Below are positions 951 to 37,589 of a stretch of 48,551 bases of DNA, in pieces. Both the position numbers and the translations under genes were made by a program. How positions within the stretch are numbered: position 1 is the first letter of the stretch; every line of letters starts with the position of its first letter. Origin of the DNA: Brucella haematophila (GTDB taxonomy: Bacteria; Pseudomonadota; Alphaproteobacteria; Rhizobiales; Rhizobiaceae); contig NZ_VCPE01000025.1 of assembly GCF_005938105.1 (NCBI RefSeq), positions 1 through 48,551 of the forward strand, written 5' to 3'. The notes beneath the pieces were generated by a model. The model was not told where the DNA came from, did no database searches, and saw only the letters and a program-made list of their open reading frames with translations.

Positions 951-1067
951 CCGTCCTTGCAAGACCGTTCTACCGTTGGCAGCCTCTTGCTTGATTTCAG
1001 GGCAAAATATTCCCGAAAAGCCATGTTGTGCAAAAATGCGCTTTCCGCTATTCCCATCAGTGGGCCA

Positions 1068-1105
1068 CGTCTCCCCACCGAGACGCGTGCTATCTGAGAG
1101 GATAG
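1068..1105 (+). promoter_or_regulatory. serC RNA motif (two-hairpin leader)
   Basis: Two perfect hairpins stand directly before serC: CGTCTC 1068-1073 with GAGACG 1080-1085, and CTATC 1090-1094 with GATAG 1101-1105. The second loop (TGAGAG) and the first base of its closing arm carry the likely Shine-Dalgarno sequence GAGAGG. Tandem hairpins upstream of serC in alphaproteobacteria are described as the serC RNA motif, a presumed cis-regulatory element. Here the structure would hide the ribosome site, which fits control of translation. The assignment is by position and shape; I have not aligned it to the family. Confidence 0.65.
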
Positions 1106-1112
1106 AAACAAC

Positions 1113-14394: not shown

Positions 14395-14419
14395 CGACGT
14401 GAAGGTGCATAATCAGCTC

Positions 14420-14845
14420 ATGAACGAACGATACAAAAAGCCCGATTACGAACAGGAACTGCGACAGGCCGGTGTGCGCATCACGCGCCCGCGCCGTATC
14501 ATCCTGAACATTTTGACCGAAACGGAAGACCATCCCGATGCGTTGGAGATCTTCCGCAGGGCGGTCGAGATCGACAGCAGTATTTCCCTGTCGACCGTTT
14601 ATCGCACCATGAAACTTCTGGAAGAGCTTGGCGCCATTCATCGTCATGCTTTTGCAGGCGGCCCGTCGCGCTTCGAACAGGCAAGCGGCGCGCATCACGA
14701 CCATATCATCGATATGGATTCCGGCGATGTGGTCGAGTTTCGCTCCGACAAGATTGAAAAATTGCAGGAAGAGATCGCCCGGTCGCTTGGCTATGAGATC
14801 GTTCATCACCGTCTTGAACTTTATTGCAAAAAAATAAAATCCTGA
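14420..14845 (+). CDS. mur: Fur-family regulator, manganese-responsive Mur type
   Basis: A 141-residue DNA-binding repressor. The winged helix covers residues 10-80 ([37 protein letters not shown]). The metal site HHDH at 92-95, with E86 and H130 nearby, is the Fur regulatory site. The second, structural zinc site is missing (only one Cys, near the end), as in alphaproteobacterial Fur/Mur. In Brucella, the Fur homologue next to the phyR locus is Mur, which senses manganese and controls mntH and irr; I rely on memory for that link. It is not Irr, which lacks this pattern. ATG 14420 is the first good methionine; the ribosome site is poor. Confidence 0.85.
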
Positions 14846-14846
14846 T

Positions 14847-14871
14847 GGAACTAATTTTCGGCGGTCGCGTT
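14847..14871 (+). promoter_or_regulatory. EcfG (sigma-E1) promoter of the small RNA candidate
   Basis: GGAAC at 14847-14851, sixteen bases, then CGTT at 14868-14871 is an exact match to the alphaproteobacterial general stress promoter. It starts two bases after the mur stop codon and points at a region without protein genes. Confidence 0.75.
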
Positions 14872-14877
14872 TTTGAT

Positions 14878-15041
14878 CCATGAAGACCGTGACCCCGCCC
14901 CCCAACACGGTCTTCATAGTTCGCCCGAACTCCCCCAAAGGGTGGACGGCGTGAACGCCGCGCAAACGGTGAACCGTTGTGCCAGCAGGCGTTTCGCTCA
15001 TTTTAATAAGCCGTCATGGTTCACCCATGGCGGCTTTTATT
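14878..15041 (+). ncRNA. candidate stress-induced small RNA with C-rich loops
   Basis: About 164 bases from the expected start after the EcfG promoter to a terminator. There are four stem-loops. SL1 has 12-base arms at 14880-14891 and 14906-14917 and a 14-base loop consisting mainly of C. An unpaired segment with CTCCCCCAAAGGG lies around 14930-14942. SL2 (14947-14960) and SL3 (14965-14978) both have TGAA loops. SL4 is the terminator. There is no credible protein frame. C-rich single-stranded loops are typical of sRNAs that pair with Shine-Dalgarno sequences; the Caulobacter stress RNA GsrN, also EcfG-controlled, is a possible functional analogue. Identity with GsrN is not shown. The antisense strand contains no gene here. 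Confidence 0.68.
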
Positions 15042-15042
15042 T
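15008..15042. terminator. bidirectional terminator (sRNA candidate and histidine kinase)
   Basis: AAGCCGTCATGG (15008-15019) pairs with CCATGGCGGCTT (15025-15036, one G-U) around TTCAC. TTTTATTT follows on the plus strand, and TTATTAAAA follows on the minus strand, so it can also serve the kinase gene ending at 15058. Confidence 0.85.
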
Positions 15043-15057
15043 GGCCGGATAGGAAGC

Positions 15058-16065
15058 TCAGGAATCAAATTGTTCGGCAGGTATGGTCAGCGAATAGACT
15101 GCGCCGGTGCCATCGATGCGATATTGCGCCTGTCCGTTGACCGAGGCGGGAACGATGCGTTGCAGAACGGCGCTGCCAAATCGCGGGTCGTGCTGGTAAA
15201 CTTCGGGCATGGCCGGATTGGTTTCTTCCCAAAGAAAAACCAGTTTTTCTTCTTCGTTTTCGGCCCGGATGACATGTGCCGAAATCGCCACACGGCCGTA
15301 GGGTATGGAGAGCCCGCCAAACGACGTGGCATTGACCACTAGCTCGTGCAGCGCCAGGCCAACATGAAGTGCTGCACCGGGGAACAGATACGGATTGTCG
15401 CCTTCAAGGCTCAGGCGCTCATCGGTGACATCGATATATTTTTCGACCTGGGAATGGACGAGATCGCGGAAGAGCGCGCCACGCCAGTTGGAATCGGTCA
15501 CCAGACCCTGCGAATAGGACAGTGACTGGATGCGCCCGCGAAATTTCAGCAGAAAATCATCGATCGTATCGGTGAAACGCGCCGTCTGGCTGGCAATGCT
15601 CTGCACGATGGCCAGCATGTTTTTGGAGCGATGGCTGACTTCGCGCAATAAGGTTTTCAGCACTTGTTCGCGGCGCTTCAGCTCGCTGATTTCCAGCGCT
15701 GTCGTCACCAGACCGAGCAGATTGCCGTCCGTATCGCGGTCACAATCGATATGAAGTTCCATCCAATGGAGCTTGTTGCCATCCATGACAGAGAGTTCGA
15801 CATTTTGCGCGGTCATGGTTTCAAGCGCGATTTGCTTGGCCGCCTTCAACTTGGCGAGTGAGGTGGAAACGATGAAATCCTCATCAATGCCGCCGGCTTT
15901 CCAGCTCTTCTGCCAATAGGAGGGGAGATTTTCGCCCCAGGCATAGGCCAGATCGGGGCGTTGGTAGAGCACGCAGACATTGCTGTTACGAACGGCTCGA
16001 AGGAGCGCGCGCAGACGGGCTGCATCCGGTTCGGCTTCGCGTAATGGCAGGTCTGATGCGCTCAT
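15058..16065 (-). CDS. PAS-domain histidine kinase of the HWE/HisKA_2 type
   Basis: A 335-residue soluble sensor kinase. Residues about 20-125 are PAS-like (VCVLYQRPDLAYAWGENLPSYW ... DTDGNLLGLVTTALEISELKRREQ). The dimerisation/phosphorylation box LREVSHRSKNMLAIVQSIASQ carries H145, and ALHELVVNATSFGGLS is the divergent N box of HWE-type kinases. No membrane helix is present, so it senses inside the cell. It lies beside the PhyR locus; kinases of this family phosphorylate PhyR in related bacteria, which makes this a candidate input to the general stress response. The start ATG 16065 has only a weak GAGAC upstream. Confidence 0.85.
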   Translation of the reverse strand: MSASDLPLREAEPDAARLRALLRAVRNSNVCVLYQRPDLAYAWGENLPSYWQKSWKAGGIDEDFIVSTSLAKLKAAKQIALETMTAQNVELSVMDGNKLHWMELHIDCDRDTDGNLLGLVTTALEISELKRREQVLKTLLREVSHRSKNMLAIVQSIASQTARFTDTIDDFLLKFRGRIQSLSYSQGLVTDSNWRGALFRDLVHSQVEKYIDVTDERLSLEGDNPYLFPGAALHVGLALHELVVNATSFGGLSIPYGRVAISAHVIRAENEEEKLVFLWEETNPAMPEVYQHDPRFGSAVLQRIVPASVNGQAQYRIDGTGAVYSLTIPAEQFDS

Positions 16066-16255: not shown

Positions 16256-16420
16256 TCAAGCCTTGCGGATTGCCGAAGCGATCAGCGACACGACGAGAAG
16301 GGCGAGGAACACGAAGAACAAAATCTGAGCGATACCCGCCGATGCCCCGGCAATGCCGCCAAAGCCCAGCGCACCTGCGACCAGTGCCACGACGAGAAAT
16401 ACGAGCGCGTAGTAAAGCAT
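16256..16420 (-). CDS. DUF1328 small membrane protein
   Basis: A protein of 54 residues with two hydrophobic helices ([22 protein letters not shown] and [20 protein letters not shown]) joined by a GIAGASAG turn; this is the DUF1328/YtjA pattern. GAGGAG seven bases before the ATG at 16420 sets the start. An exact EcfG promoter lies 31 bases upstream of the start, so it is expected to be induced by general stress. The function of DUF1328 proteins is unknown; a membrane stress role is inferred from regulation only. Confidence 0.88.
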
Positions 16421-16451: not shown

Positions 16452-16477
16452 AACGTCTTTGCTATGCATTCGGTTCC
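16452..16477 (-). promoter_or_regulatory. EcfG (sigma-E1) promoter of the DUF1328 gene
   Basis: On the minus strand GGAAC (16477-16473), 17 bases, CGTT (16455-16452). It is the general stress consensus. Confidence 0.75.
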
Positions 16478-16625: not shown

Positions 16626-17420
16626 TCAGGCCGCGACTTGAGAGGCCTCTTCGAAAAACAGTGCCTGACTGATCAGTGCCTTCACCATGTCAGGATTGAA
16701 CGGTTTGGTGACGAGGAAGGTCGGCTCGGGACGTTCGCCAGTGAGCAGGCGTTCCGGAAAGGCCGTGATGAAGATGACCGGGATCGTGTCGTCTTTCAGA
16801 ATCTCGTTCACGGCATCAATGCCCGAGCTGCCATCGGCAAGCTGGATATCGGCCAGAACCATACGCGGCTTTTCTTTTTCATAAAGCGCAACCGCCTCGT
16901 CCTTGGTACGGGCGATGCCAACGACCTCGTGACCGAGGCTTTCGACCATTTGCTCGATATCCATGGCGATCAGCGGTTCATCCTCGATGATCATCAGGCG
17001 CGTTGCGACCTGACGCGAGATTTCCGTCGAGGCGGAGGAAAGAAGACGGCCCAGTTCGGCGTCGTCGACATTGAGCACCTCGGCGGCTTCCTTGTCATTG
17101 AAGCCTTCCACCGCCACCAGCAGGAATGCCTGACGCGGGAGGGGCGCGATATGCGCAAGATTGCGGTTTGCCTGCTTTTCCCAGCCGATCTCTGACGATT
17201 GTTCCGGAACGCGGATCGATGCGGTCTTATAAAGGTCGCTGAACAGGCGATAGAGCCCGATACGGTCCGACGATGTATCCGGGAAAATGCTCACATCCGC
17301 GATCAGGGCTTCGAGCGCCGCAGCCACATAGGCATCGCCGGAGGCCTGAGAACCGGTAAGGGCACGGGAGAAACGGCGAAGATAGGGAAGGTGCGGCGCG
17401 ATACGCGTCGATAACGTCAT
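16626..17420 (-). CDS. phyR: general stress response regulator PhyR
   Basis: A 264-residue response regulator. Residues 1-135 form a sigma-factor-like domain that mimics EcfG, ending in QAFLLVAVEGFNDKEAAEVLNVDDAELGRLLSSA. The C-terminal receiver (LMIIEDEPLIAMDIEQM...) holds the phosphoacceptor D191 in LADIQLADGSSG and the conserved lysine in VTKPF. When phosphorylated, PhyR binds the anti-sigma factor NepR and frees EcfG. It is divergent from nepR-ecfG, and an exact EcfG promoter lies upstream, giving positive feedback. ATG 17420 is chosen, with AGGAG ten bases upstream; one upstream ATG in frame overlaps that site. Confidence 0.95.
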   Translation of the reverse strand: MTLSTRIAPHLPYLRRFSRALTGSQASGDAYVAAALEALIADVSIFPDTSSDRIGLYRLFSDLYKTASIRVPEQSSEIGWEKQANRNLAHIAPLPRQAFLLVAVEGFNDKEAAEVLNVDDAELGRLLSSASTEISRQVATRLMIIEDEPLIAMDIEQMVESLGHEVVGIARTKDEAVALYEKEKPRMVLADIQLADGSSGIDAVNEILKDDTIPVIFITAFPERLLTGERPEPTFLVTKPFNPDMVKALISQALFFEEASQVAA

Positions 17421-17545
17421 GATAATGGAACTCCTCATGTGCCGCATTGTTTTACATTCGCATGAATCCGGTTGGAATAACCGGCTTGAACCAGCTTTTG
17501 GCCAAGCGCGATCATCGCGCAACCGGGCGCGGCATTACGGATCAA

Positions 17546-17570
17546 AACGACGCGGCTTGAAAAAAGTTCC
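17546..17570 (-). promoter_or_regulatory. EcfG promoter of phyR
   Basis: On the minus strand GGAAC (17570-17566), 16 bases, CGTT (17549-17546). It faces away from the nepR promoter; AAAAAAGTTCC (17560-17570) is an exact inverted copy of GGAACTTTTTT (17591-17601). Confidence 0.78.
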
Positions 17571-17676: not shown

Positions 17677-17898
17677 ATGACAGATAAAGATAACCTTCAT
17701 ACGAATGGCGCCACAGTATCGCGGCGCGTCCCGAAGGACATATTAGGACCCAATTGTGAAGTCGGATTGAAACTCAAGGCGTTATACGCCTCGATTCAAG
17801 ATGAGACGATCCCGGACCGTTTCCTCGATCTTCTCGAAAAACTCGATCAGGCTGAACAGGAGAGTATGCGTGGACAGAGCACCCGGTCCGTCGGTTGA
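17677..17898 (+). CDS. nepR: anti-sigma factor NepR
   Basis: A 73-residue cytosolic protein that holds EcfG inactive until phosphorylated PhyR takes it away. The conserved NepR core is LGLKLKALYASIQDETIPDRFLDLLEKLDQAE-like: here EVGLKLKALYASIQ then DETIPDRFLDLLEKLD. The ATG at 17677 has a poor ribosome site. The 3' end overlaps ecfG by 29 bases, so translation of the two is probably coupled, which helps keep sigma and anti-sigma in balance. Confidence 0.93.
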   Translation: MTDKDNLHTNGATVSRRVPKDILGPNCEVGLKLKALYASIQDETIPDRFLDLLEKLDQAEQESMRGQSTRSVG

Positions 17899-18454
17899 TG
17901 GCAATGCCCCGCAGGGGGCGCAGTTCAAGCGCGAGATGCTGGCTTCGTTGCCAAGCTTGCGTGCGTTTGCCGTGTCGCTCATCGGGCAGCATGACAAGGC
18001 AGATGATCTGGTGCAGGACACGATCATGAAGGCCTGGGCCAAGCAGGAAACCTTCGAGATGGGCACCAATATGAAGGCCTGGCTCTTCACCATCCTGCGC
18101 AATGAATTCTATACCCAGATGCGCAAGCGCGGACGCGAAGTGCAGGATACGGATGGCGTATTCAGTGAACAGCTTGCCGTGCATCCTTCGCAATATGGCA
18201 CGCTCGACCTTCAGGATTTCCGTGCGGCTCTGGAACAATTGCCAGACGATCAGCGCGAAGCGATCATTCTGATCGGCGCTTCAGGCTTTGCTTATGAAGA
18301 GGCGGCCGAGATTTGCGGTTGCGCCGTCGGCACGATCAAAAGCCGTGTCAGCCGCGCGCGGACCCGTCTTCAGGAAATCCTCAAGATCGAGGGTGAAGGC
18401 GATTACGGTCCGGATGCGGATTCCTCCCGCGTGACCTTGCGAAGCTTTGCCTGA
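17870..18454 (+). CDS. ecfG: general stress ECF sigma factor EcfG (RpoE1)
   Basis: A 194-residue ECF sigma factor. Region 2 is visible as LPSLRAFAVSLIGQHDKADDLVQDTIMKAWAKQETFEMGTNMKAWLFTILRNEFY in pieces (DDLVQDTIMKAW is the core-binding part). Region 4 is LPDDQREAIILIGASGFAYEEAAEICGCAVGTIKSRVSRARTRL. It directs RNA polymerase to GGAAC-N16/17-CGTT promoters. I chose GTG 17870 because AGGAGAG lies six bases upstream; the next methionine (17936) would remove part of the N terminus. A hairpin at about 18463-18487 follows the stop but has no U-run. Confidence 0.93.
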   Translation: MDRAPGPSVDGNAPQGAQFKREMLASLPSLRAFAVSLIGQHDKADDLVQDTIMKAWAKQETFEMGTNMKAWLFTILRNEFYTQMRKRGREVQDTDGVFSEQLAVHPSQYGTLDLQDFRAALEQLPDDQREAIILIGASGFAYEEAAEICGCAVGTIKSRVSRARTRLQEILKIEGEGDYGPDADSSRVTLRSFA

Positions 18455-20150: not shown

Positions 20151-20183
20151 AAAACACCGGAACAGGTTCCGGTGTTTTCGTTT
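20151..20183. terminator. bidirectional Rho-independent terminator
   Basis: AAAACACCGGAA (20151-20162) pairs with TTCCGGTGTTTT (20167-20178) around CAGG. It lies between the kinase gene and the oppositely oriented holin-like gene. Confidence 0.9.
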
Positions 20184-20197
20184 TCATGGCTCTGTTA

Positions 20198-20638
20198 TCA
20201 GGCCTTGGGTGGGCGCTTCTTCTTGTCTGAAAGCAGCGACACCAATGCGATACCTGCCAGCGGCAGGGCTGCTGCCAATATAGGTCGCTTCAGGATCGAA
20301 GGGATAGTCGCCAATGCGGCTGTCGCCATCATCGCCGACTTGTCTGCCTCGATCCGCTGCTTGCGCTTTTTGGCTTCGGCTGCGGCCTGAATTTTCAAGA
20401 CCGCGAGGACAAGCAGCGCCAGAATCAACGAAATCGCGGCCAGAATCAGTGCGGCAAGCGGGCCGCCATAGGCCTGTGCCAGCGCCAGAAAGGCGGCGAC
20501 ACAGAGAAATGTGACCGTGATGATGCCGAGAATGGCAATCGCCACGCCGAAAATCGCTGCGCGTCGCGTCTGGCTGACGGCAAATTTCACTTCTTCGCCA
20601 GCCAGAGCGGTCAGAATGGGTGCCAAAGCTTTAAGCAT
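20198..20638 (-). CDS. holin-like/DUF1469-type membrane protein
   Basis: A 146-residue membrane protein with two adjacent long helices (AAIFGVAIAILGIITVTFLCVAAFLALA and GPLAALILAAISLILALLVLAVL), a basic helix (AEAKKRKQRIEADK) and a third hydrophobic stretch ending in a Lys-rich tail. This is the pattern of proteins annotated as phage holin family or nutrient-deprivation-induced, although there is no phage nearby. It starts eight bases after the DUF883 gene ends, so the two form an operon. Their place beside the stress locus suggests they are part of the stress regulon; direct proof is absent. Confidence 0.7.
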   Translation of the reverse strand: MLKALAPILTALAGEEVKFAVSQTRRAAIFGVAIAILGIITVTFLCVAAFLALAQAYGGPLAALILAAISLILALLVLAVLKIQAAAEAKKRKQRIEADKSAMMATAALATIPSILKRPILAAALPLAGIALVSLLSDKKKRPPKA

Positions 20639-23147: not shown

Positions 23148-24112
23148 ATGCTCTACCGCCCGATCATCCTCCCGTGAAGGTGGCTTCTGCCGACGCCCAT
23201 CATCATTCCTTCTGGCATGATGCGGGACGCTGGATCGGCGCGGGCATTCTTGTCCTGACAGTGCATGCGGCTGGAGCCTACGCCATTCATCTGGCGCAGG
23301 AAGAAGATCAGCCGGATGGCGGGCAGGTCGCGGCCATGGTGGTCGAGCTTGCGCCGGAGCCTATGGCTCCGATGGAAGAGCAGGTTGCCGACGAGGCGCA
23401 GCCGGAAACGGCAGAAGCTCCGAAAGAAGTCGAGCCTGAACCCGTTGTTCAGCCGGAACCGCAGCCTGAAGAACCGACGCCGCCGGAGCCAGAACAGGTG
23501 ACACCGCCGGAACCCGAGCCGCAACCAGAGCCAGAAGTTCAGGAGAAGCCGGAAGAGATCATTCCGGATGTGGTCGAGGCCGAAAAGCCGGAAGTGGCCG
23601 TGCCTATGCCGGTTGAAAAGCCGGAACCAAAGCCCGAGCCGAAACCGGAACCCAAGAAGGTCGAAAAGCCGAAAGTTGAAAAGCCAAAGCCGCAAAAGGT
23701 TGAGAAGCCGAAGCCCAAGAAGGCTGAAAAGGCTCAGGAAACCCGACAGGCGAGTGCACCGCGTATGGATGCCGACAATGGTTCCCGCGCTGCTGCAAAC
23801 CGTCGTGGCGAAAACAACGCATCGGCTGGTGCCGCTTCGAACAAGTGGAAGTCGAAGGTGCAGGCCCATATGATCCGCAATGCCCGGTATGCTCAGCGTA
23901 AAATGCGCAATGCTAAGGGTCTTGTGACGGTAACGTTCACCATAGACCCTTCGGGTAACGTCTTGTCGACTCGTGTGATGGGTTCATCAGGTGACCCAGC
24001 TGTTGATCAACTCGCGCTGGAAACGGTACGCCGCGCTTCGCCTGTACCCGCTCCGCCGCCAGCGCTTGCCGAGGCACGTCAAACGGTCAGCGTGCCGCTG
24101 ATGTTCAAGTAA
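23144..24112 (+). CDS. tonB: TonB energy-transducing protein
   Basis: A 322-residue protein. A single membrane helix at about 28-48 (WIGAGILVLTVHAAGAYAIHLA) is followed by a very long periplasmic rod of Pro-Glu and then Pro-Lys repeats (residues about 75-200), which spans the periplasm. The C-terminal domain (MIRNARYAQRKMRNAKGLVTVTFTIDPSGNVL ... AVDQLALETVRRASPVPAPP) is the receptor-binding TonB fold. It overlaps exbD by four bases and is followed by a strong terminator, so the three genes form one operon. Confidence 0.93.
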   Translation: MNALPPDHPPVKVASADAHHHSFWHDAGRWIGAGILVLTVHAAGAYAIHLAQEEDQPDGGQVAAMVVELAPEPMAPMEEQVADEAQPETAEAPKEVEPEPVVQPEPQPEEPTPPEPEQVTPPEPEPQPEPEVQEKPEEIIPDVVEAEKPEVAVPMPVEKPEPKPEPKPEPKKVEKPKVEKPKPQKVEKPKPKKAEKAQETRQASAPRMDADNGSRAAANRRGENNASAGAASNKWKSKVQAHMIRNARYAQRKMRNAKGLVTVTFTIDPSGNVLSTRVMGSSGDPAVDQLALETVRRASPVPAPPPALAEARQTVSVPLMFK

Positions 24113-24137
24113 AGCAGCAGTCAGATTATCGATAGTG

Positions 24138-24176
24138 AAAAGCCGGTCTGGTTCTGTCCAGACCGGCTTTTGTTTT
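24138..24176. terminator. bidirectional terminator between tonB and macB
   Basis: A 14-base-pair stem (24138-24151 with 24158-24171) around TTCTGT, with T-rich flanks on both strands. Confidence 0.92.
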
Positions 24177-24179
24177 GGC

Positions 24180-37439: not shown

Positions 37440-37589
37440 TGAATTTTCCGCAAATAGAAGACGGGCGTTGAGAGCCGTCCGATTCAACATGGCCGATTGT
37501 AAAAATGGGGATGTTGTTGCGTTGTCTGGCGGATAGGCGGCCAGAAGAGCCACCCGGGCTTTCACCGGGTCCTTGCGAATGCGCTTGTA

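What the first reader, a model, noticed from the sequence alone, without database searches (positions are those of the whole stretch)
14847..15042. Stress-promoter-driven structured RNA between mur and a histidine kinase
An exact EcfG promoter (GGAAC-N16-CGTT) begins two bases after the mur stop and leads into a gene-free stretch with four stem-loops. The first has 12-base arms and a 14-base C-rich loop, two have TGAA loops, and the last is a 12-base-pair terminator with TTTT. An unpaired CTCCCCCAAAGGG segment is also present. This looks like a small RNA of the general stress response placed inside the stress locus. Seen: promoter, stems, terminator. Known: EcfG consensus; Caulobacter has an EcfG-controlled sRNA (GsrN) with a C-rich loop. 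Inferred: it is expressed and pairs with G-rich ribosome sites.
Basis: partly seen in the sequence, partly recalled or inferred. Interest (0 to 1): 0.82.

Follow-up and report, generated by a model that had tools for sequence, protein, structure and literature searches.

The report
Stress-sigma small RNA beside phyK
Between two genes of a soil relative of Brucella lies a conserved, stress-promoter-driven small RNA gene whose C-rich hairpin loops probably pair with messenger RNAs; RNAs of like design occupy the same place in several other rhizobial genera, and one had been predicted for Brucella.

Summary
GGAAC-N16-CGTT (14847-14871) starts one base after the mur stop and leads into an RNA (about 14878-15042) that folds far better than shuffles (z -6.9) and ends in a 12-bp terminator. 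31 of 35 genus genomes hold it once between mur and phyK, 30 with the exact box. Covariation supports the fold: 17 of 43 pairs change on both sides, against 7.4 in shuffles. Both C-rich loops keep an invariant CCCC. In 31 other-genus loci with phyK in tandem with phyR, 11 have an EcfG box (at most one mismatch) and two or more C-loop hairpins convergent to phyK; five control regions give 0 of 31 each. Best reading: a GsrN-like sigma-EcfG sRNA. Tien et al. 2018 predicted one near this locus in B. abortus and rhizobia; RpoE1-dependent Bsr6 may be the same gene (not verified). Expression and targets could not be tested. New member of a known kind.

The parts
14396..14845 (+). mur (Fur-family regulator), upstream gene
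   Evidence: Pfam FUR 5.1e-40; reading frame; the name mur by comparison with the gene next to phyK in B. ovis (PMC12354254, passages)
14847..14871 (+). sigma-EcfG promoter box GGAAC-N16-CGTT
   Evidence: identical place in 30 of 35 genus genomes, spacer variable
14878..15042 (+). predicted small RNA, about 165 nt (5' end inferred from promoter spacing)
   Evidence: fold z -6.94; conserved and covarying; R1 match 14872-15044, 158.9 bits (this sequence was in the model)
14880..14917 (+). hairpin P1, 12 bp, 14-base loop ACCCCGCCCCCCAA
   Evidence: 6 of 9 consensus pairs with double changes
14919..14947 (+). hairpin P2, 8 bp, loop GAACTCCCCCAAA (C-rich, anti-Shine-Dalgarno-like)
   Evidence: 6 of 8 pairs with double changes
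14948..14998 (+). domain P3: long-range helix (14948-14959 with 14988-14998) enclosing a small UGAA hairpin (14965-14978)
   Evidence: 99.2% of cells paired, 2 of 14 pairs with double changes; stem column identity 0.934
15008..15036 (+). intrinsic terminator, 12 bp, T-rich tail to 15042
   Evidence: 3 of 12 pairs with double changes, 99.7% of cells paired
15058..16065 (-). phyK, HWE-family histidine kinase, convergent with the RNA
   Evidence: Pfam HWE_HK 7.4e-25; name by comparison with phyK next to mur in B. ovis (PMC12354254, passages)
16629..17522 (-). phyR, general stress response regulator
   Evidence: Pfam PhyR_sigma2, PhyR_sigma-like and Response_reg
17801..18454 (+). ecfG sigma factor gene
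   Evidence: Pfam Sigma70_r2 and Sigma70_r4_2

Best explanation
The stretch is the gene of a trans-acting small RNA of the general stress response. Under stress PhyR frees sigma EcfG from NepR (recalled pathway), EcfG starts transcription near 14878, and a 165-nt RNA ends at the terminator. Two exposed C-rich loops (P1 and P2; a third C-run inside P3 in part of the genus) act as seeds that pair with G-rich stretches near ribosome sites or in leaders of several mRNAs and change their translation or stability, as GsrN does in Caulobacter. The conserved P3 domain is probably a stabilising or protein-binding module. Shown here: promoter sequence, position, covarying fold, invariant CCCC in the loops, terminator, and RNAs of like design at the same place in other genera. 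Inferred: transcription, EcfG dependence, pairing, targets.
For: Exact box one base after the mur stop in 30 of 35 genus genomes, a one-mismatch box in G009. RNA in 31 of 35, one strong match each (69-187 bits; any further matches are at most 36.6 bits). 98.9% of pair cells paired, 87 double-change cells against 21.5 shuffled, 0 of 500; slid structures 33-50% paired. CCCC in both loops invariant in 28 of 28 rows of A1. Other genera: of 31 loci with phyK in tandem with phyR, 14 have a box (at most one mismatch) plus one or more CCCC hairpin loops convergent to phyK (one, L262, looks spurious, z -0.76) and 11 have two or more; five control regions give 0, 0, 1, 0, 1 and 0 of 31 each. Five of those loci had already been seen in a pilot look; without them 9 of 26 and 7 of 26 remain. 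Exact boxes followed by two or more C-loop hairpins: 8 of 205, against 0 of 306 control motifs and 3 of 3000 random windows. Print: GSR-dependent expression was one basis for predicting such an RNA in B. abortus (PMC5869019 section 14); Bsr6 requires RpoE1 and has its box (PMC12772402).
Against: No expression data could be examined. Three genomes (G004, G022, G026) lack the gene cleanly and a fourth (G028) lacks it too, so it is dispensable. Taken whole, the loops are only slightly more conserved than their stems (column identity 0.79 against 0.76 for P1, 0.76 against 0.69 for P2); it is the CCCC core that is invariant. R1 does not recognise the syntenic RNAs of other genera, so kinship there rests on place and design. 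17 of 31 other-genus loci show no such RNA by my criteria, and these criteria were set after looking. No target is established; a 7-base katG match is met by 2.2% of random windows. C-rich loops also occur in other families (ar7, ar14).
Confidence: 0.78

Rival explanations
1. It works chiefly as a protein-binding or sponge RNA: the nearly invariant P3 domain or the C-rich loops titrate a regulator, and mRNA pairing is secondary.
For: P3 stems are the most conserved part (column identity 0.934 against 0.764 and 0.687 for P1 and P2 stems), with double changes at only 2 of 14 pairs, as expected of a site read by sequence.
Against: C-loops are kept both in the genus and in the RNAs of other genera, which by eye mostly lack a P3 of this kind (sequences printed).
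Confidence: 0.12
2. It is a 3' untranslated region of mur with a terminator shared by mur and phyK, not an independent gene.
For: It directly follows mur on the same strand; the terminator stem is symmetric.
Against: Its own exact EcfG box is kept in 30 of 35 genomes; genomes without the RNA keep mur and phyK 30-32 bases apart; in other genera 12 of the 14 positive loci show no mur hit in the fetched region (L247 and L248 do).
Confidence: 0.05
3. Transcription towards phyK regulates phyK by antisense read-through or collision.
For: The RNA is convergent to phyK in the 31 genus genomes that have it and in 8 of 8 hits of the other-genus scan that was not tied to phyK.
Against: A strong, covarying terminator precedes the phyK stop; covarying C-loops are not needed for this.
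Confidence: 0.07
4. The stretch encodes a small protein from the ATG at 14880.
For: An ATG reading frame of 24 codons exists in the window; 27 of 31 relatives have an ATG or GTG there.
Against: 4 of 31 lack the start; reading frames run from 20 to at least 99 codons (the longest is cut by the stretch read) with differing C-termini, and 2-base indels in the P1 loop shift the frame; changes follow base pairs.
Confidence: 0.02
5. It is a diverged copy of the alphaproteobacterial sRNA family ar7 (or ar14) that moved under EcfG control.
For: 20 of the 22 non-genus R1 loci returned were checked and all 20 are Rfam ar7 loci; ar14 gives 26.6 bits, E 0.0046, on the window.
Against: Far under gathering scores (ar14 58.8, ar7 60); ar7 is not listed at E up to 10 on the window; ar7 over its cut-off lies elsewhere in 34 of 35 and ar14 in 35 of 35 genus genomes; R1 also gives 31.6 bits on a C-rich coding end at 24003-24177.
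Confidence: 0.06

Closest known systems
GsrN (Caulobacter crescentus) and the GsrN-like RNAs predicted in Rhizobium, Sinorhizobium, Agrobacterium and Brucella abortus (Tien et al. 2018, PMC5869019; section 14 and passages read)
   Same: EcfG-type promoter, 5' C-rich hairpin loop, place near phyR-nepR-ecfG
   Different: The paper reports BLASTn hits of GsrN only in Caulobacteraceae; here at least two C-loops and a P3 domain; katG is missing from most genomes of this genus
Bsr6 of B. abortus (PMC12772402; parts 1-3 of 5 and passages read)
   Same: An sRNA that requires RpoE1 (EcfG) and has an RpoE1 box
   Different: Its genome position is not given in the text read; identity not verified; its deletion did not change spleen colonisation of mice
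Bmsr1 of B. melitensis M28 (table in review PMC9751625, passages; original paper not held)
   Same: Listed orientation gene-> sRNA-> <-gene at BME_RS01840/01835, which may be the neighbourhood of BMEI0375 (listed as ferric uptake regulator, taken by me as mur) and rpoE1 (BMEI0371)
   Different: The old-to-new locus tag mapping was not found; listed as 121 nt; identity not verified
Rfam ar7 (RF02342) and ar14 (RF02344)
   Same: Hairpins with C-rich or anti-Shine-Dalgarno loops plus terminator
   Different: Below family cut-offs; copies over the cut-off lie elsewhere in the genomes; the ar14 member NfeR1 has a sigma-70 promoter (PMC7143759, passages)

Membership tests
GsrN-like sigma-EcfG sRNA | EcfG-type promoter directly upstream | tested here: met
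   Exact box, kept in 30 of 35
GsrN-like sigma-EcfG sRNA | Gene near phyR-nepR-ecfG | tested here: met
   About 1.6 kb from phyR in the window; RNAs of like design at the same place in 11 (two or more C-loops) to 14 (one or more) of 31 other-genus loci
GsrN-like sigma-EcfG sRNA | Exposed C-rich loop near the 5' end | tested here: met
   14-base loop of P1, CCCC invariant in 28 of 28
GsrN-like sigma-EcfG sRNA | EcfG-dependent transcription | not testable with these tools
   No RNA data available
GsrN of Caulobacteraceae | Sequence homology to GsrN | not tested
   GsrN sequence not at hand; the paper reports BLASTn hits only in Caulobacteraceae
GsrN of Caulobacteraceae | Activation of katG through its leader | tested here: inconclusive
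   katG over the cut-off in 7 of 35 genus genomes, so not the shared target; a 7-base match in the window genome's katG leader is weak
Rfam ar14 | Score at or above gathering (58.8 bits) | tested here: not met
   26.6 bits
Rfam ar7 | Score at or above gathering (60 bits) | tested here: not met
   Not listed at E up to 10 on the window; a genus copy (G029) scores 31.1
Rfam BSnc120 | Score at or above gathering (114 bits) | tested here: not met
   21 bits; the better match of this genome lies on another contig
Bsr6 / Bmsr1 | Same locus between mur and phyK | not testable with these tools
   No classical Brucella genome recognised among those held; papers read give no usable coordinates

The most novel reading that the evidence does not exclude
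A syntenic EcfG-driven sRNA with several interchangeable C-loops, paired convergently with phyK, is an ancestral fixed part of the general stress locus of Rhizobiaceae; it keeps design and place while its sequence turns over, and the Brucella-Ochrobactrum clade added a nearly invariant P3 module with a second, protein-binding function.
Probability: 0.3. Interest if true: 0.65.

Novelty: new member of a known kind. Interest (0 to 1): 0.45.

Why it matters
It gives a post-transcriptional arm of the general stress response a defined gene, a covariation-supported structure and candidate seed loops in a clade that includes important pathogens and symbionts, and it shows that such an RNA can be tracked by place and promoter when sequence search fails. 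That makes the question whether GsrN-like RNAs are a general part of the alphaproteobacterial stress response directly testable.

Tried and rejected
Small protein reading: rejected. ar14, ar7 and BSnc120 membership: rejected by score and by better-scoring copies elsewhere. Family-wide R1 hits as homologues: the 20 of 22 non-genus loci checked proved to be ar7, so R1 hits of 20-41 bits outside the genus are not counted as this RNA. katG as the shared target: rejected for the genus. In the window genome's katG leader CUUUGGG is complementary to 7 bases (P2 loop plus its closing G), but 2.2% of random 65-nt windows do as well; of 49 gene starts in the window 1 reaches 7 or more.

Order of the other-genus work: a pilot look at 28 loci with 1.5-kb flanks showed such RNAs by eye in six (G083, G078, G037, G136, G062, G139). 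I then fetched 40 of the 89 other-genus genomes with a PhyR match, roughly the best-scoring (G111, G124, G047 and G123 skipped), the six among them. A strict scan with a terminator demand passed 3 of 205 boxes and 0 of 243 control motifs; I dropped that demand (8 of 205), printed all regions next to phyK, and only then set the one-mismatch test. The thresholds are therefore not blind. G078 (L251) has no tandem phyK and is not among the 31.

Location of Bsr6 and Bmsr1: searches and the readings gave no coordinates that settle it. A genome-wide target prediction was not done.

Full report
What is there. The window comes from an Ochrobactrum-type organism of the genus that GTDB calls Brucella (naming recalled): its PhyK is 99% and 97% identical to those of 'Rhizobiales bacterium isolate AFS001111' and 'Ochrobactrum sp. 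RH2CCR150'. The order is mur (+), the stretch in question, phyK (-), phyR (-), ecfG (+). GGAAC-N16-CGTT stands at 14847-14871, one base after the mur stop. An RNA from about 14878 to 15042 folds at -75.4 kcal/mol, z -6.94, and ends in a 12-bp terminator. The 5' end is inferred from promoter spacing.

Conservation in the genus. Of 35 genomes, 31 hold the RNA between mur and phyK, one strong match each (69-187 bits; further matches in some genomes are at most 36.6 bits) (positions). In 30 of 35 the box is exact with spacer 16 and starts one base after the mur stop; G009 has CATT instead of CGTT. GGAAC is kept in 31 of 31 and, after one further base, AA in 31 of 31, while most of the spacer is variable. 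G004, G022 and G026 have only 30-32 bases between mur and phyK, and G028 lacks the arrangement; none of the four has a match at E 1e-4 anywhere. G022 is a 72% complete assembly. Among named records, 16 of 17 close PhyK loci (L021-L037) carry the RNA, Falsochrobactrum tianjinense included; B. gallinifaecis (L027) does not. Two more distant loci given to that call (L038, L039) have no strong match. No classical Brucella genome was recognised among those held, so presence there was not tested.

Structure. On 28 sequences (A1; G009, G017 and G032, with 55-97 extra bases in the P3 region, were left out) the consensus has 43 pairs in four helices. 98.9% of cells are paired; 17 pairs and 87 cells show double changes (shuffled means 7.4 and 21.5, 0 of 500 reach them); slid structures pair 33-50%. 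P1 and P2 carry most of the covariation (6 of 9 and 6 of 8 pairs). Their loops keep CCCC in 28 of 28 rows, though taken whole the loops are only slightly more conserved than the stems (0.79 against 0.76, 0.76 against 0.69). P3 is a long-range helix around a small hairpin, almost invariant (2 of 14 pairs with double changes; column identity 0.934).

Outside the genus. R1 searched over 394 family genomes gave, outside the genus, only hits of 20-41 bits. 20 of the 22 non-genus loci returned were scanned with Rfam, and all 20 are ar7 loci. So R1 does not find this RNA elsewhere, but finds another C-loop sRNA of like build. I therefore looked by place. A pilot look at 28 phyR loci showed EcfG boxes followed by C-loop hairpins in six (by eye). 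All 8 lie convergent to a phyK homologue next to phyR. Allowing one mismatch, 14 of 31 tandem phyK-phyR loci have a box plus C-loop hairpin there, 11 with two or more; five control regions give 0, 0, 1, 0, 1 of 31 and 0 of 31 each. Without the five positive loci seen in the pilot, 9 of 26 and 7 of 26 remain. Thirteen of the 14 fold with z from -2.8 to -6.1 (60 shuffles each); L262 (z -0.76) looks spurious. On the eight loci R1 gives only one match, 18.3 bits at another place, and Rfam has no family at the RNA in the seven of them scanned. The thresholds were set after a stricter scan (3 of 205) and after seeing the regions.

Literature. Tien et al. 2018 (PMC5869019; section 14 and passages read) describe GsrN, an EcfG-dependent sRNA with a 5' C-rich loop, and predict GsrN-like RNAs near the stress locus in R. 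etli, S. meliloti, A. radiobacter and B. abortus among others, the B. abortus one from GSR-dependent expression, proximity and a box. Caudill et al. 2025 (PMC12772402; parts 1-3 of 5 and passages read) report by Northern blot that Bsr6 needs RpoE1 and that its promoter has the RpoE1 box; its deletion did not change spleen colonisation of mice. The Brucella sRNA review (PMC9751625, passages) lists Bmsr1 with orientation -> -> <- at BME_RS01840/01835; BMEI0375 is listed as ferric uptake regulation protein (PMC10582347, passage; taken by me as mur) and rpoE1 is BMEI0371 (PMC3747064, passage). That one of these is this gene seems likely to me but is not verified. phyK next to mur is reported for B. 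ovis (PMC12354254, passages). The search (listing only) showed no report of this RNA in Ochrobactrum.

Mechanism. The most likely mechanism is seed pairing by the C-loops with G-rich leaders or ribosome sites under EcfG control. An invariant CCCC core on turning-over stems fits this. Nothing here shows pairing. katG, the GsrN target, is over the family cut-off in 7 of 35 genus genomes and so cannot be the shared target; in the window genome's katG leader there is a 7-base match, no better than 2.2% of random windows.

Verdict. A real, conserved sRNA gene of the general stress locus, of a kind already predicted for this clade; new, as far as the papers seen show, are the covariation-supported structure, the genus-wide survey with losses, and the count of C-loop RNAs convergent to phyK across other genera.

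Noticed in passing
window 17546-17570 (-) and 16452-16477 (-): Two more exact EcfG boxes, upstream of phyR and of a small membrane-protein gene (about 16256-16420, -, read by eye); by eye the same boxes stand before the same genes in several other genera.
   Followed up: partly
window 24003-24177 (+): The R1 model scores 31.6 bits on the C-rich end of a proline-rich TonB-like gene (gene name by eye), which shows how high its background is for C-rich sequence.
   Followed up: partly
L149, L151, L152 (G017, G032, G009): These relatives, with low Mur identity (84-88%), carry about 55-97 extra bases inside the P3 domain.
   Followed up: no
L154, L155, L156 (G004, G022, G026): Clean absence of the RNA gene: the mur and phyK stops are only 30-32 bases apart, and no match elsewhere.
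   Followed up: yes
window 1058-1110 (+) and 37520-37575 (-): Rfam matches to the serC leader and to sul1 RNA.
   Followed up: no
window 20159-20182 (+): Another exact EcfG box lies in the short gap between the CHASE3 histidine kinase gene (ends 20126) and the convergent gene that ends at 20198.
   Followed up: no
35 genus genomes: Sub-threshold BSnc120 matches of 54-73 bits (cut-off 114) occur once each in 27 of 35 genomes, away from this locus; the Rfam cut-off may be too strict for relatives.
   Followed up: no
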